This document shows positions 33,384 through 63,413 of a stretch of 64,000 nucleotides of DNA, piece by piece. Below the pieces are notes generated by a model that saw only the letters and a list, made by a program, of their open reading frames with translations, was not told the DNA's origin and ran no database searches. Position 1 is the stretch's first letter. The number at the start of each line of letters is the position of its first letter. The position numbers were made by a program, and so were the translations under genes. Location of the stretch: contig OU342634.1 of assembly GCA_910589415.1 (NCBI GenBank), positions 1,302,001 through 1,366,000 of the forward strand, in the 5' to 3' direction. This DNA comes from Malachius bipustulatus. Lineage: Eukaryota > Arthropoda > Insecta > Coleoptera > Melyridae.

Positions 33384-33441
33384 GGATGGATGCAATATAA
33401 CAATGATTGGTAACAATGTTGATATCAGCAGTTTTCATGTG

Positions 33442-40470: not shown

Positions 40471-40528
40471 GTTTAGTCGGTAGGAGTCCGACACTACTTC
40501 GGGCGGGAGGAACCATACCAGAAGTGTC
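40471..40528 (+). other. E1 3' UTR two-stem structure
   Basis: GTTTAGTCGG pairs through GTCGG with CCGAC (TCCGACACTACTTC), and ACTTC pairs with GAAGT in CCAGAAGTGTCCATGAGG. The same two-stem layout with compensatory changes recurs in E3, E5 and E6. It probably guides the reverse transcriptase to the RNA 3' end (inference). Confidence 0.6.
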
Positions 40529-40557
40529 CATGAGGATTCCGCCTCCTCAAAAAAAAA

Positions 40558-40571
40558 GGTCGGGTCAGGTT
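40558..40571 (+). repeat. TCAGG telomeric-type repeats between E1 and E2
   Basis: After the A-tract the sequence is GGTCGGGTCAGGT, about two and a half units with one substituted base, then the 5' end of E2 (GGGGGCC at 40572). Confidence 0.75.
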
Positions 40572-41094
40572 GGGGGCCAAAGTGTGGCATGGGATCCCAA
40601 GGTGCTGCAGCGGCCGTCTTGGTACCGCTGCGGTTACACAAATCTTGCGGCATAGCCCACTGAAGGTGCACTATGCTCAATTCAACGAGCGTGTACACAG
40701 CTCTGTCATCAAATGCTACTCTCACGTCCACGTCGTGGTCCCTGGAAACGCCACCGATTCAAAGGTAAGCGGCTAACGAGAGAGGGTGAAAGGCGAACAC
40801 CAGCGCCTTAAAACTGGTAAATCCCGACCTCCAAAGGACACACATCCGGAGTGTAAGGGTACGGCAACCCCTGGGTACCTAGCTGAGTCTCGCTCCTCTC
40901 GACCTTCTCTCTGATCTTGGACGAGCCTCCTACAACTTTCTTCTGTCTATTCTTTGGTCTTCTGTGCCGTCGGCTATCTTGCCAAGAAACTTTCTACTTT
41001 CATTTCGCCTCACCTCAGGGTTCATACGTATCGTGTATGAAACGGGAATGGCACACCCGAGGTACCCTAGCCATGATAAACGACAGATAATGAA
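40572..41094 (+). promoter_or_regulatory. E2 5' UTR with probable internal promoter
   Basis: About 520 bp matches the E6 5' UTR (55957-56461) closely: TGCTGCAGCGGCCGTC, AAATCTTGCGGC, CACGTCCACGTCGTGGTCCC, GGCGAACACCAGCGCCT and ATCTTGGACGAGCCTCC. Two copies keeping the same start point suggest that transcription begins at the first base, as with internal promoters of non-LTR elements (inference). An AAAGGTAAGC donor-like site is present at about 40759. Short upstream frames are probably not translated genes. Confidence 0.5.
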
Positions 41095-43362
41095 ATGGAT
41101 CAGGATACGGAAAACAAGTCTACGGTGCAGGGGAGGGATACCCCCGTACCGGTCGGGGATGGGAGAGAGCGAGCAGGCTCCCGCCGATCGTCATCTGGCG
41201 ACTGCTCAGTAGCCACGGTGGAAAATCAGGCCGTGGACTACAGGCCAGTTACTGGAAAAGACCAGACGGGTCAACGTGATGGTGAAAGAAGTGAGAGGAT
41301 AGAGCCCCTCATAACATCACCCTTAACGTCGGAGATCGGCGGTAGAACAGATGTTTTTTCCACCCCGGGAGACGAGAAGTGGGCGGAGGAAGAGGAAGGA
41401 TTCCATAGTTTCATTTACCAGCTGACCTCCCCGGAGGACAACATGGAAGAGAAGACGAAAAAACCGGAAATGAAAACAAAGGAATTTACTTTCGACATTT
41501 TGATGGCACAACAACTGGAGAATGAGATATCATTGGAGACGATCATCCCTCCAAGGAGAACGCCATCCCTGCCTGATATCCAGGCAGGAAATAGCATTAG
41601 ACATCTGAGACACGGATATTGGGGCCCGGAAGGGGAAGGAGAAGAAGAGACGGTAGACCTCACAATGACCCCCAGAAACTCTACAAAGAGGAGGCGGACA
41701 AATAGTTTACCCGAGATGGTCGAGACCGAAATTACCATAAGAAAAAAGAACCACGCCAAAATATTAAGAGCGATACAAGAAAACATCCAGCTCCTAGAAG
41801 AGACGGTTAAAGGTATGTACCACCCAAAAAGGGTACTTCTTAAAGTGACATCCAACCTGAGTCAACTTAAGACAAAACTATACATGAGGAACTCAACAGA
41901 CGTACACTCAAACACAATCGAAGAAACAGAGGACCGAGCAGAGCTAGAAAGCGAAAACTCTGTCCTAACGAGAAGAGTTGAGGAGCTAGAGGACATCATT
42001 AAAGGCACGGAACAAGCGAGATGTCAGCAGTGTGAGGACGCGCAGTGGAAGAGAATGAGACGTGCAGAGCTCACCGGCGAACTGAATTATGGCAATTACT
42101 TGAAGACCACCAAGGAGGACTGGGACAAGGGAGTGATCACACTCCCGAAGGAAATAAAAGGGCATGTTTGGAATGCTCCAAAATACAGAACGATAGTCCT
42201 GCCATGCACAAAGGAACTTAAAAGCAACCACAGAGAAACTGCCAGGGCCATCGGCAAAGTCGGAGGGATGGAGATGCTCCTGCAACAACAGATAGAGGTG
42301 GCTCGACTCCCGAGATTACTACACTCTTTAAATTCTCCAAAGAAAGACGGGAGTTACGAAAAAGTAGAAAAGGAAATATGCTACCCAATTGTAGCGGAAG
42401 AGGGACGGATGGAGAACGCAAGGGACGAAGACGTTTTCAAGGCTTTTATGGTCGTCAGATTGCACGCCCTACGAAACAGGAGAAAGGCGATTGCGATCTC
42501 AAAATTTGAGGATCCAAATGAGAGGCAGGAAAAAATTCTGGGCTATATCTTTTGGCGGAGAGTGCTGGTGGAGAGATACGCCCCAGAAGACACCAAAACA
42601 TACGTTAATATGGCAAGGACAAGGAAGAAATCCAGAGCCAGCACAAGCATGCCCACAGGGACGGGAAACAGAGCAGAGAGAAGGGAGGCGATAAAAATGT
42701 CGGTGGCAGAGAAATCATATGCTGAAGTCCTGGGAGACCTTAAAAGAGAACTCCAGCTAGATCAACTGGGGGTGAGTGTTGACAAGGTGACGAAGACTAG
42801 GGCAGGAGAGGTTCTGATAACAATCAAGGAGGATAGGGATAAATTAAAGTCCCTACAGACAGAGATTACCAACAAAATTCTGGGAGTAAACGCCGCCATA
42901 CTCACGGATAAGAAAATCGTCCATGTCAAGGGATTGGAGATCATGGCCACAAGGAAGGAAGTAAAATCCCAAATGGCCAAATGCCTAGGGATTGATCCGA
43001 CCGTGGTCGAGGTCGTAAACATTCGCCCAGCATATGGGGACCGACAGAACGCAACGGTAAAGATGCCCTCGAAGTGGGCACAGGAAATCTGCAGCATTGG
43101 TGTGCTGCAGATAAGATGGGCCCTTGCCAAGGTCACGGAAACAGCAAAGGCCAACAAGTGCTTCCGATGCTGGATGGTGGGCCACAGCAGAGCGGAGTGC
43201 AAAGGACCAGACCGCTCTACCCTCTGTATGAGGTGCGGTAAAGCGGGACACCAGGTTAAGGACTGTACCGAAGAGGCACACTGCTTAATATGCAAGAAGA
43301 ACGGACATGCGACCGGGGCGAAGGGATGTGGTGTAGGAACACACCACCAACCAACCCAATGA
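41095..43362 (+). CDS. E2 ORF1: gag-like RNA-binding protein, intact (755 aa)
   Basis: This is the only fully open ORF1 in the array. It begins at ATG 41095 (MDQDTENKSTVQGRDTPVPV), aligned with the start in E6. Residues 1-200 are polar and probably disordered. A coiled-coil/charged region lies around 215-310 (VEELEDIIKGTEQ). A central conserved block spans roughly 330-480 (VITLPKEIKGHVW, RTIVLPC, YPIVAEEGR, ILGYIFWRR). A YAEVLGDLKREL...IVHVKGLEI...VEVVNIRPAYG region lies around 540-660. Three CCHC knuckles follow at about 689-735: CFRCWMVGHSRAEC, CMRCGKAGHQVKDC, CLICKKNGHATGAKGC. The role is RNP formation and, for telomeric elements, chromosome-end targeting (known for SART1 ORF1; inferred here). 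Its stop TGA overlaps an ATG (ATGA). Confidence 0.85.
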   Translation: MDQDTENKSTVQGRDTPVPVGDGRERAGSRRSSSGDCSVATVENQAVDYRPVTGKDQTGQRDGERSERIEPLITSPLTSEIGGRTDVFSTPGDEKWAEEEEGFHSFIYQLTSPEDNMEEKTKKPEMKTKEFTFDILMAQQLENEISLETIIPPRRTPSLPDIQAGNSIRHLRHGYWGPEGEGEEETVDLTMTPRNSTKRRRTNSLPEMVETEITIRKKNHAKILRAIQENIQLLEETVKGMYHPKRVLLKVTSNLSQLKTKLYMRNSTDVHSNTIEETEDRAELESENSVLTRRVEELEDIIKGTEQARCQQCEDAQWKRMRRAELTGELNYGNYLKTTKEDWDKGVITLPKEIKGHVWNAPKYRTIVLPCTKELKSNHRETARAIGKVGGMEMLLQQQIEVARLPRLLHSLNSPKKDGSYEKVEKEICYPIVAEEGRMENARDEDVFKAFMVVRLHALRNRRKAIAISKFEDPNERQEKILGYIFWRRVLVERYAPEDTKTYVNMARTRKKSRASTSMPTGTGNRAERREAIKMSVAEKSYAEVLGDLKRELQLDQLGVSVDKVTKTRAGEVLITIKEDRDKLKSLQTEITNKILGVNAAILTDKKIVHVKGLEIMATRKEVKSQMAKCLGIDPTVVEVVNIRPAYGDRQNATVKMPSKWAQEICSIGVLQIRWALAKVTETAKANKCFRCWMVGHSRAECKGPDRSTLCMRCGKAGHQVKDCTEEAHCLICKKNGHATGAKGCGVGTHHQPTQ

Positions 43363-46308
43363 CCCATACACTTGCAACAAGATCTGCAGCACCTTTAAGT
43401 TTGCTGCATCTAAGATCCAGAACACCGACAGAGTCAGATCGGCACACGATCTGACTCTGAAAAAGGCAAGGGATATACATGCCGACATCCTGATCATGGC
43501 GGAACCGAATAAGAATAACTCGACTCGGCTACGGATGCGGCGATCATGGTAAAATAAAAATAATAAAAATAATAATAAAAATCTGGACATCGGCAAATCG
43601 GGTGGAGGAGAGGGGTTTGTATACGTGGAGGTAGACGGCGTCCGCGTGTACAGCTGCTACTTGTCCCCCAACAAGAGCCTAGCACAATTCGAAAACTTCC
43701 TGCAGCGCCTGGGAGACAGCCTCGAGGGAGCGAGGTGCGTCATAGCCAAGGATTTTAACGCCAAATCCCAATTGTGGGGAGGAACAGCCCAGGACAGGAG
43801 AGGTGACATTCTCTGCGCCTGGATGATGGCCATGGACCTACGAACGGTGAACCGGGGGACATGCCTACTTTCGTCAGGGGAAGGCAGAAATCCTTCCTTG
43901 ACCTTACGATAGCCGGAGTGAGGGCAGACCTCGTGGATAACCGGAAGTTCTGGGCGAGGAAACCATGAGCCATCACCAGTACCTGTCCTTTGAGATCAGA
44001 TCTACGCGGGGCGGAGGCAGGGCTGATAACCTCCTCACAGTGACAATCAATTACGCGGAAATGGCAGAACACCTGAAGAGGCTGGAAACCAGGCGAGGCA
44101 CACATGAGGAGGAGTGCGAACACATTAAAGAAGCTTAGGAGAAGGCGACGGTTCGGAGATTTGCGAAAAGGGGCAACACTAAATGTTGGTCTGAGGAGCT
44201 AGAGGAAGCAAGGAGGAAATGCACGAAAATACGTAGAAGTATCCAAAAATCCAGGAGAGCGCGCTCACATACAATCGGAAGCGACACCGAGAAAACTGGC
44301 TACAAATACATGAAAAAAACAACTTAGAAACGCCATACGGAGGGCAAAAAGAGCAAGATGGCTCAAGGTATGTGAGGAACTCGACAATGACATATGGGGA
44401 GAAGGGTTCCAAATAGTAAAAAGGCAGCTGGCGAGTCCGACTCCCCCCTTCATTCCAAGGGGCGAGGCCAGGCTGCGGGTACTAAGGGAACTCTTCCCCC
44501 AACAGCGGACGGGCATATTAAGGAACAGAGCACCCAGGGAGCGTATAACTCCTCCCATCACCCAACAGGAACTTGACGCGGCGGTCAAACGCATGAAGAC
44601 CCGCAAGGCCCCAGGACCAGACGGAATCACCCCGGATTCCGTTAGGGTTTCAGCAATCGTGCACCCGGATGACCTCCTGAACCTGCTTAATGCACTCCTC
44701 GAGGAGGGCCGCTTCCCGGACATCTGGAAGGAGGCAAAGGTCGTCCTCATCTGGAAGAGGAAAGGGGATACCCATGAGGCAAAATCCTACAGGCCAATTT
44801 GCCTCATCAACACGATGGGAAAGCTTTTTGAGATAATCATCCTCAATAGGACGAACCAGGAGCTGGAGGAGAGACAGACCATCAGCCCCAGGCAGTTCGG
44901 TTTCCGAAGCGGGTGCTCGACGACAAACGCAGTCCAGCGCGTTCTGGACGACATAAGGGCTCCGAACGAACGGGGCGGGAGAAGGGCCCCCGTGAGTGCG
45001 GTGATCGCCCTGGACGTCGGTAACGCATTTAACACCGCATCGTGGGAAAAGATCCTAACTGCGGCAGCTGGGATCCCCCTCCCGGTATATCTGATCCGGA
45101 TTCTGAGCTCCTATTTGTCAGATAGGACAATTAGAGAGAGAGGAACAACACTTCCCGTCACGGGTGGAGCCCCGCAAGGATCAATCCTGGGCCCCACCCT
45201 GTGGAATATCGTGTACGATGGGGTGCTTCGTCTGGCCATGACATCCGAGGTAAGCATGGTGGCTTACGCGGACGACCTCATGTTAATAATTAAAAATAGA
45301 GACGTACAAGAGATAGAGAGCAGGGGTAATGAGGCGGTATCCAGGGTGTCCCTCTGGATGACGTAGACCGGACTCGGGCTGGCGGCGGAGAAAACACAGG
45401 CTGCAATTTTCACGAATTCCTGGAAAAAGCGGGATATAGAGTTCAGGGTGAGAGGGCTGAGGATAAAGGCAGCCAATTCAATTAAATACCTGGGGGTAAC
45501 CCTCGACAAGGGACTTATGCTCGGGGCACACATCGGAGAAGCGACTGCGAAGGCCCACCGAGCATGGAACGGCATCAGCGGGCTCATGTCCAGAGTGGGT
45601 GGATCTGCGGCGACCAGAAGAAAAGTTCTGGCCGCCGCAGTCATGTCGGTCGCACTATATGCTGCACCTGTTTGGTACGGTGCACTGAGAATAAAGAAAT
45701 ATAGAAACATGATGACTGGTCTCCAACGTCAGACGCTGATCGGAGTTACCTCAGGATACAGGGCGGTATCCGCAGAGGCCTTACAGGTAATTGCGGGAGC
45801 ACTTCCTGTAGAGGAAACAATACGCCTGAGAAGCGAGCAGTTCTCCGGGAGAGACCGGAAAAGAAGTGATCTTCAAAAAGAAGCAAGAATACGGTGGTAG
45901 GCCTCGTGGAACACCACAGCAAACGGGGCCTGGACAAGAAGACTTATCCCGACACTAGAGAAATGGTTGGACCGCAAGTGTGGTGAGGTGGACTTTCACC
46001 TCACACAGTGCCTCTCGGGACATGGAGTGTTCGGGGAGTACCTCCACCGAATAGGGAAGGCTGAAACACCGAAGTGCTGGTATTGCTCGGAGGGGGATAC
46101 TCTCGAGCACACCATTTTCCACTGCCCGAGGCGAAGCACTGATAGACTCGACTTAGAGCTAAAAACAGGAGTTGAACTGAACGCCGACAACATGATCAAC
46201 ACCATGTTAAAAAAAGAGGAGTCCTGGAAGCAAATCGCCTCCTACCTGCGGCGGATAATGCTACAAAAGGAGGAGGACGAAAAGAAAAGGATTTGGATGG
46301 ATAGCTAA
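43359..46308 (+). pseudogene. E2 ORF2: endonuclease-RT (frameshifts, two stops)
   Basis: The endonuclease starts in a shifted frame as KFAASKIQNTDRVRSAHDL (about 43397) and MAEPNKN. It is broken by an A/T microsatellite at about 43549-43582, then VYSCYLSPNK and FNAKSQLWGG, in which the catalytic GD is changed to KD. After further frame changes near 43900-44330, a single frame carries the rest: RKAPGPDGI, EAKVVLIWKRKGD, QFGFRSGCST, ALDVGNAFNTASW, GGAPQGSILGPTLWN, VAYADDLMLII (45262-), YLGVTLDKGL, LYAAPVWYG, TSGYRAVSAEALQ. The tail CWYCSEGDTLEHTIFHC starts at about 46077 and the stop is at 46308. TAG stops at 45364-45366 and 45898-45900 interrupt that frame. Domain order is that of R1-clade ORF2. 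Confidence 0.85.
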
Positions 46309-46380
46309 ACAATGGCACCCGAGTCGATGAAAGACCCAACAGGGTCCTTAGTACCGGCTCGGGCGCAGAAGAACGAAGGG

Positions 46381-46438
46381 TTTTTAGTAGGTGCAAGCCC
46401 CACAGTCCCCTACGATTGAGCTAGCGTAGGGGCTGCGT
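46381..46438 (+). other. E2 3' UTR stem structure
   Basis: AGTCCCCTACG pairs with CGTAGGGGCT across a 10-base loop. The first stem seen in the other copies is degenerate here (TAGTAGGTGCAAGCCCCAC). Confidence 0.5.
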
Positions 46439-46468
46439 TAGGCATTTTTACTCCATTAAAAAAAAAAA

Positions 46469-46493
46469 GGTCAGGTCAGGTCAGGTCAGGTCA
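46469..46493 (+). repeat. TCAGG telomeric repeats between E2 and E3
   Basis: Five GGTCA units follow the A-tract without a mismatch. E3 begins at 46494. Confidence 0.9.
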
Positions 46494-47910
46494 CCTCTGA
46501 TATGGAAGGGTAAAGGGAGCCCGGAGGACCCGAGGGCGTACAGACCGATCTGCCTGATAGACACGCTGGGAAAACTCTTCGAGAAGGTACTGCTTAGCAG
46601 AATATCTACCGAGATCGAAGACAGAAGGGCAATAAGCCAAAACAAGTACGGGTTCAGGAAGGGAGCATCGACGGTGATAGCGATAAAAAGACTAATAGAT
46701 GAAATCCGGACCTAGGACGCAGGCAGAGCAAGGAGGGCACAGTTGAGTGCAATTATTGCTCTGGACATCAGGAACGCATTCAACACGGCGAATTGGAGCG
46801 AAATTGAGGATGCCCTGGAGGCGGTCCCGGTGTCCGGATACCTTAGGAGGATCGTGGGCAGCTACTTTTCGGAGAGGGTCCTTCTGGAAGAAAGAAGAGA
46901 GGAACAAGTGACGGGGGAGTCCCCCAGGGGTTGATTCTGGGACCTACCCTATGGAATGTCTTTTATGACGGTCCCCTGCGTCTTCCAATGTCGCCGGGCG
47001 TAAGCCTGGTGGCATACGCGGATGACGTCGTGATAATAGTGAAGGGGAAGACCAACGTTCAAATCGAGAAGAAGGGGAATGAGGCCATCAAAAAAGCCAA
47101 GAACTGGCTTGAGAGAGTGGGTCTACGACTGACACCGGAGAAGAGTGAGGCTTTGGTCGTGACCAATTCATGGAAGACACAGTCTATAAGGTTGGGGTGA
47201 CGCTTGACCGGCGGATGGGGTTCGGGAAACACATGGAGGAGGTCACGACCAAGGCCAGGAAAATTTGGAAAGCCCTGGCAGGACTGATGCCCAGAATCGG
47301 AGGACCCAGTCACCGAAGACGACGCATACTGGCGGGAGTGATCAATTCGGTTGTGCTATATGCGGCCCCCATATGGTACAAGACGATGTTGGTCCAAAGG
47401 CACAAAGACACGCATATCAGGCTGCAAAGACAGACCCTCATCGGGGTGACTGCGGCATATAGAACTGTTTCCACAGAGGCCCTGCAAGTCATTGCAGGCG
47501 CCATGCCAATTGATGAGCAGGAACTATACCGAAGTTTATGTTTCGAACAAAGAGCAACGGCAGAGGGTAGAACAAGACGACAGCTGCTTGAAGAATCTAC
47601 GGAAAGGTGGCAGGACAGGATGGGACCAAACCCCGAACGGAGGGTGGACCAGACGACTGATCCCAAACATAAAAAAGTGGGTAAAAACTCAAACCTAGAA
47701 TGCAGGTTTTCGCGTCACCCAGTGCCTCTCCGGGCATGGGGTATTTGGAACGTACCTGCTAAGAATTGGAACAGTGGAAGACGATAAGTGTTGGTACTGC
47801 GAAAACAGAGATGACCGAAACACACACTGTTTAGATGTTCCAGATGGCTCCCAGAAGAACAAAACTGGAGGCCATAATAGGAAAAAAGATTGAGCCACAT
47901 AACATCATAG
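46494..47910 (+). pseudogene. E3 ORF2 fragment: RT and C-terminal Cys/His region
   Basis: The order is LIWKGKG, RAYRPICLIDTLGKLFEKV, KYGFRKGASTV, then a TAG near 46714, and IALDIRNAFNTANW. After a frameshift at about 46920 comes LILGPTLWNVFYDG, then VAYADDVVIIV (about 47012), TPEKSEALVVTNSW, and after a further shift GVTLDRRMGFG, LYAAPIWY, LQRQTLIGVTAAYRT and TEALQVIAG. The end carries a degraded CWYCENRD...H zinc motif near 47790-47830. The endonuclease and ORF1 are absent because of 5' truncation. At least three frame changes make it non-functional. Confidence 0.8.
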
Positions 47911-48002
47911 ACATAATGACGGAGGATAAGGTCAAGGGTAACAACATAGCAACATACTTGAGGGAAATAATGAAGGAAAAGGAGAGAGAGGAGAAGAGAA
48001 GG

Positions 48003-48412
48003 TGTTCCGTCCTCATTTCCCGTTCCTACACCCGCCTGTGGTCCGGACGGCAGAGTGCACTACGACGCATCGATACTCGCCCCGCACCCCTGAAGGAAGA
48101 ACCTACAGGTGAAAAAAGAGTGAAGATTAACCCTTCGAGACGGTCGCACGCAAAAGATATCGCTCCGCGCTCCGCTATATTCGCACGCTCGCTGTTGTCA
48201 TCCAATTGTAAGTACCCGCTTGTTTTTTCCTAATTATTTCTTATCCTTATCAATATATAATTCTTTACCCGCATTTATCGCTACACCGCCACTATTCATT
48301 AATCCGCGTTTATTGGGAATTACAGGAACTAAAGCTGTTTTCTGTACCCTACCGCCGGCGTCTTAGACAGGTCGTAAAAATATAATTGCGTCTGTGATAA
48401 GAACCCCAAACA
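48003..48412 (+). repeat. 5' LTR of the BEL/Pao element
   Basis: It starts TGTTCCGTCC and ends CCCCAAACA. It is the same length as the 3' LTR and I found no base difference between them by line-by-line comparison. Confidence 0.9.
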
Positions 48413-48413
48413 T

Positions 48414-48431
48414 TGGTCCTTCGAGCCGGAT
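48414..48431 (+). promoter_or_regulatory. tRNA primer-binding site
   Basis: TGGTCCTTCGAGCCGGAT begins one base after the 5' LTR. It is complementary to the 3' end of a tRNA with acceptor strand TCGAAGGA plus CCA. This matches animal tRNA-Tyr as I remember it (mature 5' end CCTTCGATAGC). Confidence 0.65.
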
Positions 48432-49165
48432 TTAAGTAATTAATTGAAATCAGATCAATTAATCACATTTCAAAAAAAATCATTCGCATTTCACTTTGTC
48501 AAAATTTCAATGCAATAAGTTACTTTGCATTGATTATTTACTTTCCGCACTTGTTATTCGCAAAAATAAGCTATAGATACTTGTTTTTCATTTTTTCGAA
48601 GTCACGAAGTTATTAATTAAAGAACTTCATCGCGAAATTACAGCATTTGTTAACTTGCTACAAATTTGTAAATTTCATCATTCTTTAATTGTAATTGTGT
48701 TTAGAATATTTCATTCTAGAAAATAATTACCGCATGTAATAACTATTCGATCGATCTTAATTAATTAGGTACCTATACGTATTGCTGAAAAATATTTGGT
48801 GAATATTTTGTACCCACACCCCTTGCTTGAAAAGTGTAGTCTGCCTTGGGGTAATAAAAACCCGTCCTCGTCTCACCTCACACCACTACGTTTTATTCTC
48901 TCTCGCTACTGTGTTTGCACCTTGCACGTGCAGGCAACTTTTAACAATTTTACTAATCCCGGTCTCCGGAAATATTACGTCGAGGTGGTATCCTGGTTTG
49001 GAAATTATTGATTATTTTCAAGCTGAGTTGGTGTTGGTGTCGGTAGGTATATACTTATATACCTATAAGTTCAGAGAAGAATAATTCTATTATTCACGCA
49101 TCATCCTTCTTTTACTCGCATTTTCAATTGAGAAAATTTAACTTTTATTAATTCGCTAATTCGCT

Positions 49166-53047: not shown

Positions 53048-53252
53048 TGAGCAGTCTCTTATCAATTTATAATTTGTAAATATCGCAACTGCTGTAAGTT
53101 TTAGGAAATTCACATTTAATTCGCATTCTTCGCTTATTATTCGCTACGCAAGTGCTGCAAAGTAAATCTTTATTTTAATAGTCTTTTTTCAAATTCGCAA
53201 ATTCGCTTCACTTTTTTTCGGAAAATTACATTGTAATTTTGGTGGGCGGTAA

Positions 53253-53662
53253 TGTTCCGTCCTCATTTCCCGTTCCTACACCCGCCTGTGGTCCGGACGG
53301 CAGAGTGCACTACGACGCATCGATACTCGCCCCGCACCCCTGAAGGAAGAACCTACAGGTGAAAAAAGAGTGAAGATTAACCCTTCGAGACGGTCGCACG
53401 CAAAAGATATCGCTCCGCGCTCCGCTATATTCGCACGCTCGCTGTTGTCATCCAATTGTAAGTACCCGCTTGTTTTTTCCTAATTATTTCTTATCCTTAT
53501 CAATATATAATTCTTTACCCGCATTTATCGCTACACCGCCACTATTCATTAATCCGCGTTTATTGGGAATTACAGGAACTAAAGCTGTTTTCTGTACCCT
53601 ACCGCCGGCGTCTTAGACAGGTCGTAAAAATATAATTGCGTCTGTGATAAGAACCCCAAACA
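53253..53662 (+). repeat. 3' LTR of the BEL/Pao element
   Basis: Exact copy of 48003-48412. A purine-rich GGTGGGCGG tract lies immediately upstream (about 53241-53249). Confidence 0.9.
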
Positions 53663-53772
53663 GAAGGAATACAAGAAACCAGGACGACAATGGAGAAGAG
53701 ATAAGAGACAGGCGTGTCGCTGTGATGTAAGTCGACATGACATTGGTCCCACGCGGCACGCATAAAGGAGGG

Positions 53773-53830
53773 GTTTTAGCCGGTAGAACTCCGGCACTAC
53801 CCTGGAAGGGCAGAACCACACCAGGGTGTC
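53773..53830 (+). other. E3 3' UTR two-stem structure
   Basis: TTTTAGCCGGTAGAACTCCGGC forms stem 1 (GCCGG with CCGGC). ACCCTGG pairs with CCAGGGT as stem 2. The positions match E1, E5 and E6. Confidence 0.65.
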
Positions 53831-53865
53831 CTATGAGGATTTCCCCTCCCCCCCCTAAAAAAAGA

Positions 53866-53875
53866 GGTCAGGTCA
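53866..53875 (+). repeat. TCAGG repeats between E3 and E4
   Basis: Two GGTCA units after AAAAAAAGA; E4 begins at 53876. Confidence 0.75.
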
Positions 53876-54884
53876 CCTAACCAGTAGAAAGATTCTTACA
53901 GGCACTGGTAAAGGAATGAGCATAAACGCGGGAGTCCCTCAGGGCTCAGTACGGGGACCGACCCTCTGGAACGTCCTATACGACGACCTTCTGAAGCAGA
54001 CATTGTGCGACGGCTGCACCATGACCGCATTTGCGGACGACTTAGCAGTCACAGAATGAAATTGTGAAAAAGTGAAAGAATCCGCGAAGATGGTGCAGAC
54101 GTGGATGACAGATCACGATCTCCAGCTGGCACAACAAAAACCCGAGATAATATTGGTGAAGGGCCCTAGAAAGAAGGACATAGAATTTGAAAGAGAGACC
54201 AAAACGATCCATCACGTACCTCGGTGTGGTAATAGATGATAAACTAATGTTCGGGCACCACGTGCGACATTTAGTAAGGAAAGCAGATGAGTGGCTCTCT
54301 TCCCTCTCGAAATTAATGCCAAATATCGGTGGACCCGGAAGCCTTAAACGTAGGGCACTATAGGGAGTAATAGAATCGATAATTTTGTACGCGTCCTCCG
54401 TATGGAGAAAGGTGATGGCTATCTGCAAATATAGAACCATGCTGGAGAGCATCCAGAGAAGAGTATTGTTAAGGGTAGCAAGCGGATACCGCACTATCTC
54501 AACGCGGGCGACCGGGGTGATAGCCGGGGTACCCCCCTCCACCTCATCATTGAGAAAAGAACGCGGATATATACCAGACGATCGGAGGGAAAAACGACGA
54601 CGCGAAAAACAGAAAGGATCGAAACCATAAGAAAATGGCAAGAGGAGTGGGACAGAGAACAAACAACAAGCAAGACTTCTACCTGACCCAATTTCTCTCT
54701 GGGCACGGTAGTTTTGGCAAATACCTAAAACATATAGGAAAACGTGATGAAGCCGGATGCCCTTACTGTGATGAAACATGTGACGACCCAGAACCCGCAG
54801 TGCTACAGTGCAATAGATGGGAGGCGGAGATACACACCACCAAGATCCTGAGAAGTCTAGGAGTAGTGATTAATAGGTCCTTCA
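53876..54884 (+). pseudogene. Element E4: 5'- and 3'-truncated SART-like ORF2 fragment
   Basis: It begins in the RT directly after TCAGG units: NAGVPQGSVRGPTLWNVLYDD, then TAFADDLAVTE (about 54025-54045) with a stop just after. Frames shift into YLGVVIDDKLMFGHHV, MPNIGGPGSLKRRAL, LYASSVWRKV and LLRVASGYRTISTRAT. A Cys/His tail, CPYCDETCDDPEPAVLQC, lies near 54759. Its sequence is closest to E6 (FADDLVII, KYLGVVIDDQLIFGQHV, MPNIDGPGS). The 3' UTR is absent: after INRSFTW it runs straight into E5. Confidence 0.75.
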
Positions 54885-55901
54885 CATGGCCGTAGGGAGA
54901 GCACTAAAGAGCGCCACTGCCATAGGTAGGCTACTGCCAAACGTAGGCGGATCCAGAGACAGCCGAAGGAGAATACTAGCCTCGAATGTCAGCTCAGCTA
55001 TATTGTACGGATCGGAAATATGGGGCACGACCCTTAAAATAAAATGGGTTAGCGAAAAACTCCTGAGGACCCAAAGAAGGATTGCCATAATGGTTACCTG
55101 GGGATATAAAACAATATCCACGGAAGCACTGTCGGCCATAGGATCAATCATTCCAGTAGACCTCTTTATAACGAAAAGACAGGATATATTTCGATAGAGC
55201 GAAACTAATCCTAGTAAACCTGTGAGAAAGATCAAACTAAGTGCAAGAGATAAGACCATCAGGAGATGGCAGGGGAGGTGGAACATGGGAACACACGACG
55301 ATGGACAGTCAAGCTTATACCCGACATCAGACGATGGCTTAAGAGGAAACATGAATGACACTTTTGGACAACACAAGCACTCTCAAGACACGGATGCTTT
55401 AACAGCTACCGAGTGAGCATAGGAAAGACCTTCTCAGGGGCCTGCTGGCACTGCAAAGGAGGTCATGAAGATACTCCCCAACATACTCTATTTGCCTGCG
55501 AAGGGTGGAGAGAAGCCAGAGAGAAGCCAACAAGCCAGAGAGGCCCAAAAAGAGCTGGGAGGCAAAAAACTGGTTGGGGATAACATGGTTGAGTGCATGC
55601 TGACATCGGGAGAAGGATGGACTGCAGTGACCAGATACATCTCGAAGATCCTTAAAGAAAAGATGACGGGGGAGACAAGGAGAGAGGTTCCTACACCTTT
55701 AGATATCAACTAGATATCAAACGACAAGTGAAAGACAAACACTCCTATCCTGAAGTAATATCTGCGACGGTCCCGGGATAGGAGGGCAGGCTGAGGGGAA
55801 TGGGTTTAGTCGGTAGGCGCTGGAGTGAATCCGACACTCCCCGAGGAACCCTGTTCCTCGGGGATCTTTTGAAGATTCCTAGTCCCCTCAATAAAAAAAA
55901 A
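54885..55901 (+). pseudogene. Element E5: C-terminal ORF2 fragment with 3' UTR
   Basis: It opens inside the post-RT thumb (RALKSATAIGRLLPNVGG, ILYGSEIWGTTLK, LLRTQRRIAIMVTWGYKTISTEALSAI). Past a stop at 55197 and frameshifts it shows CWHCKGGHEDTPQHTLFAC (about 55450), the C-terminal zinc motif. The 3' UTR has the two-stem structure at 55803-55864 and an A-tract at 55893-55901, followed by the longest TCAGG run in the window. Confidence 0.75.
55803..55864 (+). other. E5 3' UTR two-stem structure
   Basis: GTTTAGTCGG pairs with CCGAC (stem 1). CCCCGAGGAAC pairs perfectly with GTTCCTCGGGG across CCT (stem 2). Confidence 0.65.
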
Positions 55902-55902
55902 T

Positions 55903-55956
55903 GGTCAGGGCAGGCCAGGCCAGGTCAGGTCAGGTCAGGTCAGGTCAGGTCAGGTC
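55903..55956 (+). repeat. TCAGG telomeric repeat array (54 bp)
   Basis: About eleven units, the first few imperfect (GGTCAGGGCAGGCCAGGCCA), then seven clean GGTCA units ending CAGGTC at the 5' terminus of E6. TCAGG is the beetle telomeric unit. Confidence 0.9.
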
Positions 55957-56461
55957 GGGGGCCAAAGGGTGGCATGGGGTCCCAAGGTACCGCAGCGGCC
56001 GTCAGGGTACCGCTGCGATTACACAAATCTTGCGGCAAGCCCACTGAAGGTGTACAATGCTCAATTCAACGAGGGTGCACACAGCTCTGTCACCAAATCT
56101 CTCACGTCCACGTCGTGGTCCCTGGAAACGCCACCGATTCAAAGGTAAGCGGCTAACGAGAGAGGGTGAAAGGCGAACACCAGCGCCTCTAAACTGGTAA
56201 ATCCCGACCCCCAAAGGACACACATCTGGTGTGGAAGGGAATGGCAACTCCTGGGTACCTAGTTGAGGCTCGCTTCACTCAATCTTTTTCCTGATCTTGG
56301 ACGAGCCTCCTAAACTTTCAACTTCCTTACTTTTGGCCTTCTGTGAAGTCGGCAACCTTGCCAAGATCTTTAAATTTCCTTTCGCCTCACCTCAGGGTTC
56401 ATACTTTTGTATGAAACGGGAATGGCAAACCCGAGGTACCTCAGCCAAACCCAAGATTAGA
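55957..56461 (+). promoter_or_regulatory. E6 5' UTR with probable internal promoter
   Basis: Collinear with the E2 5' UTR, with scattered substitutions and small indels (for example GGTACCGCAGCGGCCGTC against GGTGCTGCAGCGGCCGTC). Confidence 0.5.
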
Positions 56462-58640
56462 ATGGAAATGGAAAACATAGGAAAAGAAATTACGGAGCAG
56501 GGGAGGGATACCCCAGTTCCGGTCGGCAGTGTGGGTGGTGGAGCAGGCCCTGGTCGACCGTCAGCAAGCGACTGTGATGCAAGAGAGGTGGAAGCCCAGG
56601 CCTCCTTGCGAGTAGCTACTGGACACCCCGAGGGAAACTACCGGGGAAAGAATAAGGACTTCCTTCTACGATCTGGACTCTCCAGATCCTTTCAAGAGGG
56701 CTTCGGCCCTGAAGAGATCACCCATCACGGGTCAGAACGAACAGGCAAACCAGGTTGAAATACAGACGGAGGCAGATCCAGGGATAGAGGATGAAGCGAC
56801 TGAGATGGATGTCAGCTCGGAGGTAACACCAGAAGGGCTGGTGAGGCCACTACAACCAGCTCTAATAGATCTGACCACACCAATAGGCAGGAAGAATAAG
56901 AGAAAAAAATGGAGCTCCTCACCTGACATCACAGGACAGGATGGAGACACAGCTGAGGGTGATGAGGCAATAAAAAACGAGGCCATAGAAGAAATGAAAG
57001 AAATAAAACAAGAAATCCGGAAACTGATGAGTATGAACAAGGAAATGATGAAACTAATGTCAGAAAACCCTAACACAAAACGGGAAATTAAAAGACAAGC
57101 CGAAGACATGAACAGAGCCATAACAACCTTAAACAGAAAATGGAACGAAAGGGAAAACCGGATTGAAACATACGAAAAGAAGCTTGCCTCCTTGACTAAA
57201 GAGGCCCAACAAATTGAGACGGCGAAAGGAAACACCATGAAAAGTACAGGAACCCAGGCTACCCCAGAAGATATTGAAAGGGAAACAAAAGAAAAAATAC
57301 GAAAACAGCAAGTTGAAATTGAAGCTGCCATTAATGGCGAAAAAAACTAGAAAAAATGAAAAACATACTGGACATAGAGTGGCCGGAGGGAGTCTTCAAA
57401 AACACCAAAAGGACTAGGATAAGATGGAGTGAAAAGGACAGCGACCGGAATGTTGCACTGATCTTCGATCGAGCGAGACAGGGCGAAGTGGAGCAACATA
57501 TTACAGACAAATTCCCGCAAATAAAAATGCTGCTGGAAGAACAACTCGAGAAAGATAGAGTGGAACACACCACTTCCAAAATAGAACAAACCTTTAGTAG
57601 AGGAAGATACACAGTGAAAACAAATACAGCGTTTGTACTGCCAATAGATATAGATCAGGAAGAGCCTGATGAAGTTAAAATGATGTATCAAATAATCAAA
57701 AAACTCGGAGAAAAAAACACCGAAATGGGTATAAAGGACTTACTCCTGCTGACCAGCGGCCAATTAGAAACAAAATACATAAGGAAATGCGCAGAGCAAA
57801 TATTCAGGGGCACAGACACTACTGTAGAGGTGGAAGATCAAAGGAACAAAACAAGACACCAGAGCACTGGGGGAGGGATCCCACAGAGGAAGAAAACGGA
57901 CAGCAACAAGCTGGTAATAAAGAGTGACGGAAGAAATTATGCTGACATCATTAAAATAATGAAAAAAGATGTCGATATACAAAAAGAAGGAATAAAAATA
58001 AGATCAATGAAGTCGACAGTAGCCGGACACCTTCTGGTGGAGGTAGACGGAGACAAAAAAAACTTGATGAAACTCAAAGAACAAATTGATAAAAACTCAC
58101 AGAACCTGAAAGCTTTCGAAGCTAGAAACAGCGAAACGTTATACATATACGACATCGAACCGGATATAGATGAGGAAACGCTAATGACAGAACTCGCTAA
58201 AAATCTACCAAATGTTGCGAATAGTGACGCGAAGGTGGTGTCTCTGAGAGAGGCCAGAAATGGCAACAAAACTGCCATAATTACGATGAGGAAACATACG
58301 GCAGAAGATATCGCGAAACTCGGCAAAAGTACAGATAGGATGGACGAGCGTGAGAGTTAGGAAAAAAGTTAGTATTCTGAGGTGCTACAGGTGCCTGGAA
58401 TATGGCCACCACGTTACTAACTGCAGCGGTACTGACAGGACGGGTAATTGCTTAAACTGCATGCAACCGGGACACAGGGCTAAGGACTGCAAGAATACAC
58501 CATACTGCAACAAATGCAACAAAAACGATCACAGGGCGGATTCTGCCAAATGTCCCATATTTAGGAGACTCTTCCGAATGACAAGCAACACAGGGCAGGA
58601 AGAGAGAAGAAGAGTAAATACGGGCTCTACATCAGCATAA
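56462..58640 (+). pseudogene. E6 ORF1: gag-like protein (frameshifted)
   Basis: The start ATG 56462 (MEMENIGKEITEQGRDTPVPV) matches E2 ORF1. A frame change between about 56700 and 56805 leads to ALIDLTTPIGRKNKRKKW and a long Lys/Glu coiled coil (to 57350). Another shift leads to 57356-58360 with NVALIFDRARQGEV, NYADIIKIMKKDVD and IRSMKSTVAGHLLVEVDG. A last shift reaches the knuckles CYRCLEYGHHVTNC, CLNCMQPGHRAKDC and CNKCNKNDHRADSAKC (58383-58553). The stop is at 58640. Three single-base changes therefore separate it from an open frame. Beyond the knuckles and N-terminus it is much diverged from E2 ORF1, so E2 and E6 are different subfamilies. Confidence 0.8.
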
Positions 58641-58642
58641 AC

Positions 58643-61545
58643 ATGACAATAAACATCCTACAAACGAACCTAGGACGCTCCAGGGCGGCTCACGACATGG
58701 CATACTCTATGGCACTCGAAAGAGGAGTGGATATCATCGCCATTAGCGAACCTAACAAGACACTACTAAAGAATCCCTCCTATGTAGTAGATAAGGCCGG
58801 GAATGTGGCAATACAGGTGATTAACAGGAACGTCGGGATAACAGAACATAGGCAAAGGGTGGTCTCCCTTGATAAATGGAGAATATACTGTTTGTACCTC
58901 TCACCGAACATAACAATCCAACAATATAGAGATACAATAGACCGCATGAAGTTGAGAGTAATAGAACACAGGAAGCAATCATCATGGGAGACTTCAACAA
59001 CGCCAAGTCACCATTATGGGGAGCACCGATCACAGATAGGAGAGGGGAGTATCTGGCCGAATGGGTATCCAAATTAAACCTGATAGTAATGAACACCGGC
59101 GAGGCCACATTCGTGAGAGAGGCAAGTAGAACACACATAGATGTGACGATGGCGACCTCCAAGATCGCAAAGCGAATAACAGACTGGAGGGTACTGGACG
59201 AAGAGTGCTTCACACACCACAAGCACATATTCGTGAGCGTGCTGGAGCGCCCAGTAAAAGACCGAAATAAAGACCGGCAAACCGAAATAACAGACACGGA
59301 AAAACTAGCAAGAAACCTTAAGATTTTGAAACGGGGAAACTATAACGCTAAAACCCTGACAAATACTATCCGGAAATGCATTAAAGACAGCAGCGTCCAG
59401 AAACAACCAGAAAGAAGGATACCATATTGGTGGAACAAGGAGATCGAGGCGGCCAAAGCAAAATACATCAAAGCAAGGCGAAAATCCACTAGAGGCAACA
59501 GAGGAAACGGAAATCAAAAGAGAGAAGAAGATAACACCGGAAATCTGCGGGAACTAGGCGAGCTGAAAAAGCACCTCAGGAAAAGGATAAGACAAGCTAA
59601 GAGAGACTGCTGGAAGGGGCTCTGCAGAGAACTGGAGAATGATCTGTGGGGAAGGGGTTACCAAATAGTAACCAAGTACTTTGGTAAACAGGGTGGACTT
59701 CCCTATGATCCAACCAGCGACCAAAAAATAAAATGGTGTAAGGAGCTATTTCCATCAGGAAGAGGGAGAGCCACGAAGTGGAAGGAGGACAGGACCAAAC
59801 CCAGTTTGTTCACAAGAGAGGAACTGGAAGTAGCGACGGGCAGTATGAAGACAAAAAAGGCCCCTGGCCCTTATCGGATACCTCCTGAAGTGATAAAGTT
59901 GGCCGTTAAAATATCACCAGATACCTTCCTGGTGATATTTAACAAACATCTGTTAGAACAAAGCTTCCCGCTCGAATGGAAGGAGGCAAAGGTGGTGCTG
60001 GTGTGGAAGGGGAAAGACATGCTAAGGGCGACATCATATAGGCCGATTTGTTTACTAAATACTACGGCGAAACTGTATGAGACGATGATTAGAAACAGAC
60101 TCGAGGTGGAGATGAATGAAGGGGGGGGACTCTCAACAGAACAATACGGTTTCCGCAAGGGAAAGTCCACCATAATGGCGGTCGACAGGCTACTGAGGAA
60201 AGTTGAGGCATCAAAGGGAGTATGGGTCACAGCAGTGACCTTCGATATAAGAAACGCCTTCAACACTGCCTCATGGACGCACATAATCGACGCTCTGGAA
60301 AGAAAGGGCATTCCTACCTATATGGTCAACATCATAGACAGCTACCTCACGAACCGGAATATTCTGATAGGAACAAACAAAAGCATGAGTATCACAGCGG
60401 AAGTCCCACAGGGTTCTATATTGGGTCCGACGCTGTGGAACATAATATATGACGAACTGCTGCGACAAAAACTGATAACAGGCAGCTCAATGCTTGCCTT
60501 CGCAGATGACCTAGTCATAATCACCGAGGCACCGGATGCAAGGGAACTGAGGTACAGGGTGGAGGAATCTGCAAGACAGATCGAAGTGTGGCTGAGGGAA
60601 CACGACCTCAAGCTAGCGGAAGAAAAAACAGAGGCGATAGTCCTAAAGGGGCCCAGGAAAAGAGATTTCCTCAAATTCAGTATTGCGGGGAAATTGATTG
60701 CACCAACGAAGAAATTGAAATACCTCGGGGTCGTCATAGACGATCAGCTGATCTTCGGCCAACATGTTAGACACGTGGTGAAGAAGGCAGAGGAAAGACT
60801 GGCGACACTATCGAGAATGATGCCAAATATTGATGGACCAGGAAGCATCAAGAGGAGACTGCTGTACAACGTAATGGAGTCGGTTGTCCTGTATGCGGCG
60901 CCCATATGGAAAGGGGTAACCCGGATAAAAAGATATGATAGTATGCTTGGCGGAATACAAAGGAAAGGACTCCTGAGAGTGGCTAGTGGTTACCGAACGG
61001 TATCCACAGCGGCGATCAGGGTCATTACCGGAATACCCCCGATTAGTCTTATAATAGATGAACGAGCGAGACTGCACAGAATGGAGGGGAGAATAACGAG
61101 AGCGGAATGACTGGCCCAACGGACAGAGACAATAAAGAGTTGGCAGAGGGAGTGGGAGAGGGAGACGCATGGCGAGTGGACGAGGAGACTGATAGGGAAA
61201 ATAGAGGACTGGGTCAATTGTGATTTTCGCAGAGTGGACTACCACTTGACGCAATTTCTGTCAGGCCATGGTAGCTTCGGCAATTACTTGAAGAGAATAG
61301 GGAAAAGAGAGGATGATAACTGCCCCCACTGTAGGGAAAAAGACGATCCGGAGCATGCAGTGCTCGGATGTAATAGATGGCTAAGGGAAAGACGGGAGGT
61401 GGAGGAAAAGATCGGAGAGAAACTAAGCGTGAGAGGACTGGTGGAATCAATTACAAGATCCGAAGAAAGCTGGAACACAATCCATGATTTCATAACCCAG
61501 GTTATGAAAGAAAGGCAGAGGCTAGAGCAAACCAGAGAAAGCTGA
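58643..61545 (+). pseudogene. E6 ORF2: endonuclease-RT, nearly intact (one frameshift, one stop)
   Basis: ATG 58643 opens MTINILQTNLGRSRAAHDM and ISEPNK (endonuclease). Near 58976 one base is missing, and the other frame continues with IIMGDFNNAKSPLWGAP (catalytic GDFN), THIDVTMAT and H-H residues. Then WWNKEIEAAKAKY, KTKKAPGPYRIP, EAKVVLVWKGKD, YGFRKGKSTIMAVD, VTFDIRNAFNTASW (about 60237), EVPQGSILGPTLWN (about 60401), LAFADDLVIITE (about 60494), KYLGVVIDDQL, LYAAPIWKG, LLRVASGYRTVSTAA. A TGA at 61108-61110 interrupts the same frame, which goes on to LTQFLSGHGSFGNYL and CPHCREKDDPEHAVLGC (61321-61370). This is R1-clade telomeric type, by repeat context. Confidence 0.9.
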
Positions 61546-61623
61546 GGAAATTAACAACGACACTGGCACCGAGGCAAACCACATTCATGGTGTTTCCGGT
61601 GTCAGTGAGAGCGACGAGGAGGG

Positions 61624-61702
61624 GGTTTAGCCGGTAAGTACCCTAGCCGTAAGACTGGGTAAGTCCGGCACTACCCGGGGAGGGGGGAACCACCCCGGGT
61701 GT
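61624..61702 (+). other. E6 3' UTR two-stem structure
   Basis: GTTTAGCCGG pairs with CCGGC (GTCCGGCACTACC) around a 35-base loop. ACCCGGGG pairs with CCCCGGGT. Same layout as E1, E3 and E5. Confidence 0.65.
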
Positions 61703-61736
61703 CCATGAGATTCCCCCTCCATCACAAAAAAAAAAA

Positions 61737-61758
61737 CAGGTCAGGTCAGGCCAGGTCA
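61737..61758 (+). repeat. TCAGG repeats between E6 and E7
   Basis: CAGGTCAGGTCAGGCCAGGT plus CA, four and a half units with one substitution. Confidence 0.85.
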
Positions 61759-63060
61759 TTCTTCACAGGACTTCTGTGTTATTCCAAATGGTTTGTATCA
61801 TTTTCTTTAGATATCCTCCTTCTGTAATGTTTGTATTATGTGTAACAAGGGTTTCTATTCCTTGGTCAATTGTGAGTCTTTTAATTTCGGTTAGCTTCTC
61901 CCACATATCTTGTCTGTTTCCAATTACTGCCTTTATTAGCACTGTATTATTTTCTATTATTTCGTTTCCTTCTCTCCTCTTCGTGCTAACCGTTAGAGAG
62001 TCTATTTCCCTGTTTGATAGGTCCTGCAATTCTGGGTACCTATTTATCCTGAAATTTTCTTTGTATATTCTTATCCATCTCCTTATCGCTCTCCTCTACT
62101 AGTACGACTATATACTTTGCCTCCCTTGACGCCACTGGATTTCCAGCCACCGTTTCAACGTTCTTGAAGACGTCTTCCTTCCATTCTTTTCCGCACATAT
62201 TTTCAAAATCTTGGAAGTTCTCGATTCCTGCTAATTCCCTCTGCCCTATTGCTTCCTATACATTTCCGGAGTTCCCTCTCGTGTATTTCATCCTTTCTTT
62301 TATCATTTCTTCCTCCATTCTATTTTTTCCATTCTTCATCTCATCTAGTTTTATTCTGAGCTCCTTTCTTTCTGAGTTTTCTTTCTGTAATTTCATCAGT
62401 TCAATCTTTTCTATCTGGGTTGTCTGATCTTTATTTTCTGTTTCAGGTTCATGCTGTGTCTTCACTTCCAGTTCTTGGATTCTTTGTTCCTGTTATTTAA
62501 TTTTCCCTCTCAGTGCCTCGTTTTCTAATTCGTGCTGCAACATGTTATTAGTCTTTTCTCCCTCCTCGTAGAACACCGTATCGTTCAATTCCTCATATCT
62601 GTCATAAACTTTGTTATATTCATTTTGCATCAGGAACATCTCTCCCCTGAGTTTTTTCTGCACCTTGGTTACCTCTTCTGTTAAGGTTGATATACACTTG
62701 CTCCATTATTTTATTTCTTTGTGTACATTATTGGTATTCGTGCAGAATTTGAGTAGTTCTGAAACGTTCGCCTTTAGTTTCTCCACTGCATTTATTGGCC
62801 TGATATCCAAAGTTGACCTCGGGCTGTAATTTAGCCTCCTTTTCTTTGTTCTGTTGCCCTTTTTCGTCAGGTCAACGACCTGTTCCGTCTGACCTTCCTT
62901 GCTTTGTTCCGGGACCGAAGCCGATCTTTCCTTCGTTTGAGGGGACCTAACTAAGCTCCTTCTTCCCATGAAAGGATCTGCTATATCTTCTTTCCGTTGA
63001 TCAGACCCTTGGGCTCTATTATCTCCGACCTTCTGTCTTCTATATCTTATAAAAAAAGAC
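61759..63060 (-). pseudogene. E7 ORF1 N-terminal portion, inverted
   Basis: On the minus strand, from 63060 downwards, the sequence reads an ORF1 N-terminal half. It has a basic low-complexity region (RSLVRSPQTKERSASVPEQSK), VVDLTKKGNRTKKRRL, then a long coiled coil (LQKENSERKELRIKLDEMKN, MIKERMKYTRG) with several stops. The middle region is VASREAKYIVVLVEESDKEM and, after a shift near 62030, LIKAVIGNRQDMWEKL and MIQTIWNNTEVL. This corresponds to E6 ORF1 from VVDL/LIDLTTP through IIKKLGEKNTEM to EQIFRGTDTTVEV. The rest of E7 is on the plus strand, so this piece is inverted relative to it. Confidence 0.75.
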
Positions 63061-63387: not shown

Positions 63388-63413
63388 TTATCGACAATAA
63401 TTACCCAATTCTC

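What the first reader, a model, noticed from the sequence alone, without database searches (positions are those of the whole stretch)
40549..61758. Tandem SART-like retrotransposons separated by TCAGG: beetle-type telomeric or subtelomeric domain
Seen directly: five A-tract/TCAGG junctions (40549-40571, 46458-46493, 53857-53875, 55893-55956, 61726-61758), each joining the 3' end of one R1-clade element to the 5' side of the next in the same orientation. Known: TCAGG is the telomeric repeat of Tribolium and many beetles, and SART/TRAS elements insert site-specifically in insect telomeric repeats. Inference: this window belongs to a telomere or subtelomere of a beetle whose chromosome ends are built from both short repeats and these elements.
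Basis: partly seen in the sequence, partly recalled or inferred. Interest (0 to 1): 0.85.

Follow-up and report, generated by a model that had tools for sequence, protein, structure and literature searches.

The report
Relic interstitial SART retrotransposon array
This stretch holds worn-out jumping genes that insert into the chromosome-tip repeat TCAGG, stacked head to tail, but they sit inside a chromosome rather than at its tip, while better-preserved copies of the same kind sit next to long tip repeats elsewhere in the same genome.

Summary
The five A-tract/TCAGG junctions are real and share one orientation. They join SART-type, R1-like LINEs: poly(A) meets AGG and 5'-complete copies start after TC (TT at one drifted spacer), so insertion falls at TC^AGG, like SART1Bm's TT^AGG. 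The 5' ends fit an HDV-like ribozyme; the 3' UTR has a covarying RNA structure. The location claim fails. The window is C6:1,302,001-1,366,000 of a 51.1-Mb contig whose TCAGG telomere is at the far end. The array lies in a domain of about 180-200 kb, points away from the near contig end, is decayed, and runs without a gap into non-array DNA. In the listed part of a genome search, (TCAGG)40 occurs on C1-C25 only at three contig ends. Four small contigs carry stop-free SART-like ORF2 matches with long TCAGG. SART in beetle telomeres and interstitial SART are in print: new member of a known kind. Side findings: a 5' module 81-96% identical between elements 36-53% alike in protein; junctions concentrated near non-telomeric contig ends.

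The parts
28826..30543 (+). E0: degraded R1-like RT fragment, interrupted between about 29.0 and 29.9 kb
   Evidence: tblastn
30902..40548 (+). E1: degraded SART-like element (ORF1 30902-32144, EN 35341-35973, RT 36281-36850 and 38808-40219) split by nested inserts
   Evidence: tblastn with ORF1/ORF2 of relatives; weak EN match to TRAS1 1wdu (E 0.00035); inverted repeats in inserts
40549..40571 (+). Junction 1: poly(A) + AGG TCGGG TCAGG TT
40572..46457 (+). E2: 5'-complete SART-like element; ORF1 still open 41080-43359; ORF2 broken over several frames
40572..40782 (+). E2 candidate HDV-like ribozyme: P1 40572-40578/40737-40743, P2 40719-40723/40778-40782
46458..46493 (+). Junction 2: poly(A) + AGG(TCAGG)4TCA
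46494..53856 (+). E3: 5'-truncated SART-like element split by a BEL/Pao LTR element
48003..53662 (+). Nested BEL/Pao LTR retrotransposon (LTRs 48003-48412 and 53253-53662, 100% identical; ORF 49166-53047)
53857..53875 (+). Junction 3: A-tract (one G inside) + AGGTCAGGTCA
53876..55892 (+). E4: 5'-truncated SART-like element, apparently a fusion of two 3' halves
   Evidence: two successive matches to the same RT C-terminal region
55794..55887 (+). E4 3'-UTR RNA structure, match to RF00524 (R2 RNA element)
   Evidence: 39.8 bits, gathering 38, the only gathering-level match in the window; structure across copies
55893..55956 (+). Junction 4: A-tract + TGG + about 11 units of TCAGG and variants
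55957..61725 (+). E5: 5'-complete SART-like element; ORF1 in three frames; ORF2 58565-61542 with a frame break and a stop
55957..56162 (+). E5 candidate HDV-like ribozyme: P1 55957-55963/56117-56123, P2 56099-56103/56158-56162
61726..61758 (+). Junction 5: poly(A) + CAGGTCAGGTCAGGCCAGGTCA
61759..64000 (+). E6 (continues past the window to about 66496): inverted 5' ORF1 piece 62043-62249 on -, zinc-knuckle ORF1 63046-63363 and EN from 63596 on +
   Evidence: its poly(A) at window-extended 66497 and TCAGG tract at C6:1368507

Best explanation
It is a decayed interstitial array of SART-type non-LTR retrotransposons. Each element's endonuclease nicks the strand opposite TCAGG between TC and AGG, and reverse transcription is primed there, leaving element-poly(A)-AGG(TCAGG)n on one side and (TCAGG)nTC on the other (inferred from junction anatomy and SART1Bm experiments). 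Since insertion keeps TCAGG on both sides, the array is its own target and grows head to tail in one polarity. A 5' HDV-like ribozyme would free each unit from read-through transcripts; a structured 3' UTR would mark its RNA (both inferred). Better-preserved arrays of this kind lie beside long TCAGG on unplaced contigs. The copy in the window is internal and no longer terminal; it began either on an internalised telomere or on a short interstitial TCAGG tract.
For: Junction anatomy. SART1Bm joins poly(A) to AGG at TT^AGG (PMC7265360 passages). EN/RT match TRAS1 EN 1wdu (E5, E1, E2) and, through a homologue, R1Bm EN. Ribozyme fold: P1 pairs 7 of 7 in 6 of 6 copies, at no other place in the first 230 nt; 98.1% of cells paired against 43.5-58.3% in slid controls. 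3'-UTR structure: 8 of 17 pairs with double changes, 0 of 500 shuffles as good on four of five measures. Listed (TCAGG)40 on C1-C25 only at C6 right, C14 left, C17 right. C33, C49 and C51 begin with CCTGA repeats, C51 ends with TCAGG repeats. ORF2 matches without stops: 19 of 19 on C26/C33/C49/C51 versus 27 of 45 elsewhere (counted from its list). Seven of seven strict junctions and six of six 5'-UTR matches at C6:1.17-1.37 Mb are +. No N in C6:1298001-1378000.
Against: The left end of C6 shows neither a telomere nor a satellite, so what lies beyond it is unknown; a gap-free misassembly cannot be excluded. No RT tree with named SART/TRAS/R1 references was possible. Ribozyme cleavage is untested: no pair shows a double change and the shuffle control says nothing (500 of 500 as good, columns nearly invariant); Rfam gives no ribozyme at gathering level in the window and only sub-threshold matches. 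One downstream junction (E7) lacks the 3'-UTR motif and was left out of the structure count. E2's ORF1 is still open, so not every part is decayed.
Confidence: 0.82

Rival explanations
1. The window is a true telomere or subtelomere, the left end of C6 being misassembled or misoriented.
For: SART/TCAGG arrays that fit composite telomeres exist in this genome; the array is only 1.3 Mb from a contig end that lacks a telomere.
Against: Wrong polarity for the left end; no (TCAGG)40 listed there; no N in 80 kb and non-array DNA follows; elements decayed; the telomeric ends read show a 66-bp satellite and no match to E1-E5 in 2-10 kb.
Confidence: 0.1
2. Internalised telomere: a whole composite telomere was buried by a fusion or inversion and then decayed.
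For: About 180-200 kb, one polarity, elements of several lineages, as in C26. The review PMC12036569 reports an interstitial TRAS/SART telomere in a butterfly.
Against: Neither the 66-bp nor the roughly 170-bp satellite found beside terminal arrays occurs in the 80 kb examined.
Confidence: 0.45
3. ITS-seeded colony: one element landed in a short interstitial TCAGG tract and the array grew in place.
For: Short interstitial tracts are common: about 52 separate tracts of four or more units in the listed part of C1 (1.95-51.83 Mb, counted), with only 2 strict junctions on C1. Dispersed copies sit in tracts of 4 and 8 units (L050, L053).
Against: Needs many successive insertions at one locus while most tracts hold none.
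Confidence: 0.4

Closest known systems
SART1Bm (Bombyx mori)
   Same: Element sense strand on the G-rich telomere strand; poly(A) joined to AGG; insertion between the two pyrimidines and AGG (PMC7265360, passages)
   Different: Target TCAGG instead of TTAGG; copies in the window are broken and internal
SARTTc1-7 (Tribolium castaneum)
   Same: Prefer TCAGG, several types, also mapped beside short TCAGG arrays that might lie within centromeric regions (PMC7598501, passages)
Interstitial TRAS/SART telomere of Lysandra bellargus chromosome 38
   Same: Telomere-like repeat/retrotransposon block inside a chromosome (PMC12036569, passages and section 7)
   Different: Butterfly, TTAGG with TRAS and SART; here TCAGG, SART-type polarity only, decayed
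HDV-like ribozymes of non-LTR elements (R2, RTE, SART)
   Same: P1 strand at the exact 5' end with a long J1/2 (layout of R2 ribozymes recalled); SART named among carriers (PMC11620745 passage citing Ruminski 2011; Ruminski itself not held)
   Different: Same 5' module present on strongly diverged elements; activity untested

Membership tests
SART (telomere-specific R1-clade LINE) | R1-type APE endonuclease plus RT, zinc-knuckle ORF1 | tested here: met
   RVT_1 and Exo_endo_phos_2; matches to TRAS1 EN 1wdu in E5, E1 (weak) and E2; a 47%-identical homologue of E5 also matches R1Bm 2ei9; CCHC motifs in ORF1 of E2 and E5 (read by eye) and Pfam zf-CCHC in E1
SART (telomere-specific R1-clade LINE) | Insertion in the telomeric repeat, sense strand on the G-rich strand, poly(A)-AGG junction | tested here: met
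   (exact at E2 and two downstream junctions, one base or one unit changed at the others); 84 strict junctions genome-wide, reversed control 0. Off-target copies with target duplications also exist
SART (telomere-specific R1-clade LINE) | RT phylogeny groups with SART1/SARTTc | not tested
   no named SART/TRAS reference among the 120 listed of 939 hits
SART (telomere-specific R1-clade LINE) | 5' HDV-like ribozyme (reported for SART) | tested here: inconclusive
   fold matches but shuffle control uninformative; Rfam scores below gathering; no activity test
Telomere/subtelomere domain | Terminal position, G-rich strand pointing to the near end, long terminal repeat | tested here: not met
TRAS | Sense strand on the C-rich strand | tested here: not met
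   0 of 9 TCAGGTCAGG matches in the window and 0 of 7 strict C6 cluster junctions in that polarity

The most novel reading that the evidence does not exclude
In this beetle, telomere-repeat LINEs keep two niches: live arrays beside long TCAGG, and self-sustaining interstitial arrays concentrated near the non-telomeric, probably centromere-proximal, chromosome ends, which act as reservoirs and mark former chromosome ends; diverged lineages sharing these arrays exchange one ribozyme-bearing 5' module.
Probability: 0.3. Interest if true: 0.65.

Novelty: new member of a known kind. Interest (0 to 1): 0.4.

Why it matters
It shows in one assembly both the terminal and the interstitial state of the same telomere-repeat retrotransposons, so it can be tested whether such arrays record chromosome fusions or grow in place. 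The 5' module shared by strongly diverged elements is a clean case for asking whether LINEs in tandem arrays swap their 5' ends.

Tried and rejected
Telomere/subtelomere: rejected by position, polarity and repeat length. Scaffolding misjoin at a gap: no N in C6:1298001-1378000. Subtelomeric satellite beside the array: none found in 80 kb. Naming the species: the BEL/Pao protein search gave at most 48% identity. TERT fits a beetle (a near full-length match to PDB 3du5, which I recall as Tribolium; Zophobas morio 32%), but gives no species. MFE folding of the first 94 nt of E5 showed nothing unusual (z -0.27); the ribozyme needs pairing over about 165 nt, so this does not test it. Gypsy LTRs beside E0: no direct repeats found. 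Two fetched stretches were uninformative: L051 (3' end of a C2 copy not reached) and L060 (5' end of a C16 copy not reached). The roughly 170-bp satellite of C33 could not be located genome-wide (unanswered).
Full report
Observation. The window has 9 matches of TCAGGTCAGG, all on +, against 0.08 expected. The spacers run from a degenerate tract with one perfect TCAGG (40549-40571) to about 11 units with variants (55893-55956). The array is longer than stated: E1 extends back to about 30.9 kb with nested inserts and a further RT fragment lies at 28.8-30.5 kb; no SART-like match was found left of that in the window. To the right it continues past the window with TCAGG tracts at C6:1368507, 1369274 and 1370297, and its last recognisable coding match ends near C6:1372745.

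What the elements are. The RT and endonuclease domains are recognised by Pfam. E5, E2 and (weakly) E1 match the TRAS1 endonuclease structure 1wdu, and a homologue of E5 (P0001, 47% identical) also matches R1Bm 2ei9. Protein matches between elements of the array range from about 28% to 65% identity, so several lineages share the array. ORF2 of E1-E6 is broken by frameshifts, stops or truncation, while E2's ORF1 is still open over 760 codons. E3 was split by a BEL/Pao element whose LTRs are still identical. E6 has an inverted 5' part, as expected of twin priming (established for L1; recalled).

Insertion site. Poly(A) is followed exactly by AGG TCAGG at E2 and at the two junctions at C6:1369274 and 1370297; E1 has AGG and then a variant unit, and E3, E4, E5 and E6 each differ by one changed, added or lost base. 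The 5'-complete copies begin after TC (E5; also L041 and L043) or TT (E2). SART1Bm joins poly(A) to the AGG of TTAGG after a nick between TT and AGG (PMC7265360, passages). The site here is therefore TC^AGG in SART polarity. TRAS polarity was not seen in the array. Genome-wide, A7GGTCAGGTCAGG occurs 84 times and its reversed control 0 times. Specificity is not absolute. Of five other E5-family copies whose 3' side was fetched, three have TCAGG (L050, L053, L054, the last inside the C16 cluster), one has none (L052) and for one the end was not reached (L051). The L052 copy (C4:39.8 Mb) lies between repeats AAGATAGATCTATC, with some filler on the 5' side. A full-length copy at C17:16.7 Mb is flanked by a repeat of about 14-15 bp, (A)GGTTGCGGGGACAA, with no TCAGG array, and a copy at C17:24.55 Mb has poly(A)-AGGTCGAATC on its 3' side.

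RNA features. In six of six copies examined, the first seven bases of the element pair, G-U included, with alignment columns 166-172, and no other 7-mer in the first 230 nt does so. With P2, P3, P4 and a CUAA segment this is the layout of an HDV-like ribozyme with a long J1/2: 98.1% of cells paired against 43.5-58.3% when slid. L043 has three changes in its first eight bases and all keep pairing. Limits: the structure was drawn from these same sequences, no pair shows a double change, all 500 shuffles do as well because the columns hardly vary, the window has no ribozyme at Rfam's gathering level, and the partial matches stay below it (RF01787 24.6 of 37 bits in L041; RF02682 16 of 44 bits in E5). 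It is a strong candidate and not a proof. HDV-like ribozymes in telomere-specific SART are in print (PMC11620745 passage). The 3' UTR has a conserved three-helix structure in 16 sequences: 93.4% of cells paired against 51.5-67.3% when slid, 8 of 17 pairs with changes on both sides, 0 of 500 shuffles as good on four of five measures (the fifth, pair types, 72 of 500). The structure was predicted on the same alignment, several rows are close relatives, and E7, which lacks the motif, was left out. E4's 3' end reaches the gathering score of RF00524, the R2 RNA element; the other elements in the window do not.

Shared 5' module. E2, E5 and four copies from other loci were compared. In 14 of 15 pairs the coding parts are 36-53% identical in protein, yet the first 215 nt are 82-96% and the next 215 nt 81-91% identical; the fifteenth pair, L042/L043, is 97% in all three. 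For E2/E5 the drop is sharp near nt 630/590, just inside ORF1. Exchange of 5' modules is the simplest reading. Constraint on the ribozyme explains part of it: the first 215 nt are the better conserved half in 9 of the 10 pairs without L044 (equal in the tenth), but not in 4 of the 5 pairs with L044.

Where it lies. The window is C6:1302001-1366000 of a 51,110,408-base contig. The right end of C6 ends in about 95 TCAGG units next to a 66-bp satellite. The same layout is found at C17 right and C14 left, and the satellite alone at C16 right. None of these four ends shows a match to E1-E5 in the 2-10 kb read. Of 30 contig ends read by then (20 left, 10 right), three carry TCAGG arrays. In the list, which runs in contig order and stops inside C26, perfect (TCAGG)40 occurs before C26 only at C6 right, C14 left and C17 right. 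The array is thus 49.7 Mb from the assembled telomere of its contig. Its 7 of 7 strict junctions between 1.19 and 1.37 Mb and 6 of 6 5'-UTR matches between 1.17 and 1.36 Mb are +, away from the near contig end. There is no N in the 80 kb examined and non-array DNA follows, including a 273-codon open frame with a weak kinase match just below the Pfam cut-off. The left end of C6 shows no telomere and no satellite, so its nature is open.

Where the better-preserved arrays are. C33, C49 and C51 begin with CCTGA repeats, and C51 also ends in TCAGG repeats; C26 has (TCAGG)40 from about base 1098. C26 and C33 end at their right in a satellite of about 170 bp. On these four contigs 19 of 19 scored ORF2 matches have no stop in the matched part, against 27 of 45 elsewhere, the window's own E5 included (counted from its list; 63 of 13270 candidates were scored; ORF1 was not checked). 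So this genome has SART/TCAGG blocks that fit composite telomeres, and a telomerase gene: PF12009 at C16:24.9 Mb, a near full-length match to PDB 3du5, 32% identity to a Zophobas morio protein.

Distribution. Of the 84 junctions, 24 are on C26/C33/C49/C51, 3 on C18 and 57 on chromosome-scale contigs. On the four contigs with a recognised telomeric side (C6, C14, C16, C17; C16 by satellite only) 0 of 45 lie within 6 Mb of that side, 36 within 6 Mb of the other end and 9 between. Merged into 22 events this is 0, 14 and 8, with 14% expected per side; binomial P 1.4e-7. The 6-Mb limit was chosen after seeing the data and C16 alone gives 26 of the 45. The other ends of C14 and C16, though not of C6 and C17, carry a GC-rich satellite shared among contigs, which suggests but does not show centromere-proximal regions. 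This fits the report of SARTTc beside short TCAGG arrays that might lie within centromeric regions in Tribolium (PMC7598501, passages).

Origin. Two origins stay open: an internalised telomere (length, polarity, mixture of lineages) or a colony grown from a short interstitial tract. Such tracts are common (about 52 in the listed part of C1), and dispersed copies are seen in tracts of 4 and 8 units (L050, L053). Absence of both subtelomeric satellites in 80 kb leans slightly to the second; size and polarity lean slightly to the first.

Novelty. Composite SART telomeres in most studied Coleoptera and an interstitial TRAS/SART telomere are in print (PMC12036569, passages and section 7). A search joining SART, interstitial telomere and beetle returned 5 papers and SARTTc 4. 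Of these I read passages in PMC7598501, PMC12036569 and PMC5537684; the others were seen as listings only. The array is a new member of a known kind.

Noticed in passing
C51 (133,651 bases), L048 and L058: Contig with CCTGA repeats at its start and TCAGG repeats at its end, strict SART junctions facing outward on both sides (3 - then 6 +): two telomeres joined in assembly, or a very small chromosome.
   Followed up: partly
L022:221-1220, L029, L037, L038: A 66-bp satellite adjoins terminal TCAGG at C6, C14 and C17 and is the last sequence at C16 right.
   Followed up: partly
55794-55887; L063:303-399: SART-like 3' UTRs score against the R2 RNA element RF00524 (39.8 bits, above gathering; 29 bits, below): possible shared 3'-UTR architecture between R1-clade and R2 elements.
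   Followed up: partly
24715-28866: Ty3/gypsy pol and gag open frames on the minus strand abutting the E0 fragment, without LTR repeats detected.
   Followed up: partly
62043-62249: 5' inversion in E6, twin-priming-like, in an R1-clade element.
   Followed up: no
C16:3.60-3.89 Mb: Thirteen strict junctions, all minus, with 4 of 7 ORF2 matches free of stops (4 of 5 at 3.61-3.64 Mb) inside a chromosome-scale contig: an interstitial array that looks young; two of its matches score nearly the same as matches on C26.
   Followed up: no
L054 and L065, 3' of the TCAGG tract: Both continue, after TCAGG, into the same different 5' sequence (CTCAAGGGTGCCACCTTG...), which looks like the 5' end of another SART-like lineage without the shared 5' module.
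   Followed up: no
L001-L008: Short TCAGG tracts at dispersed places on C1 (1.95-3.52 Mb; eight overlapping stretches covering three places) without a poly(A) SART junction in those read.
   Followed up: partly
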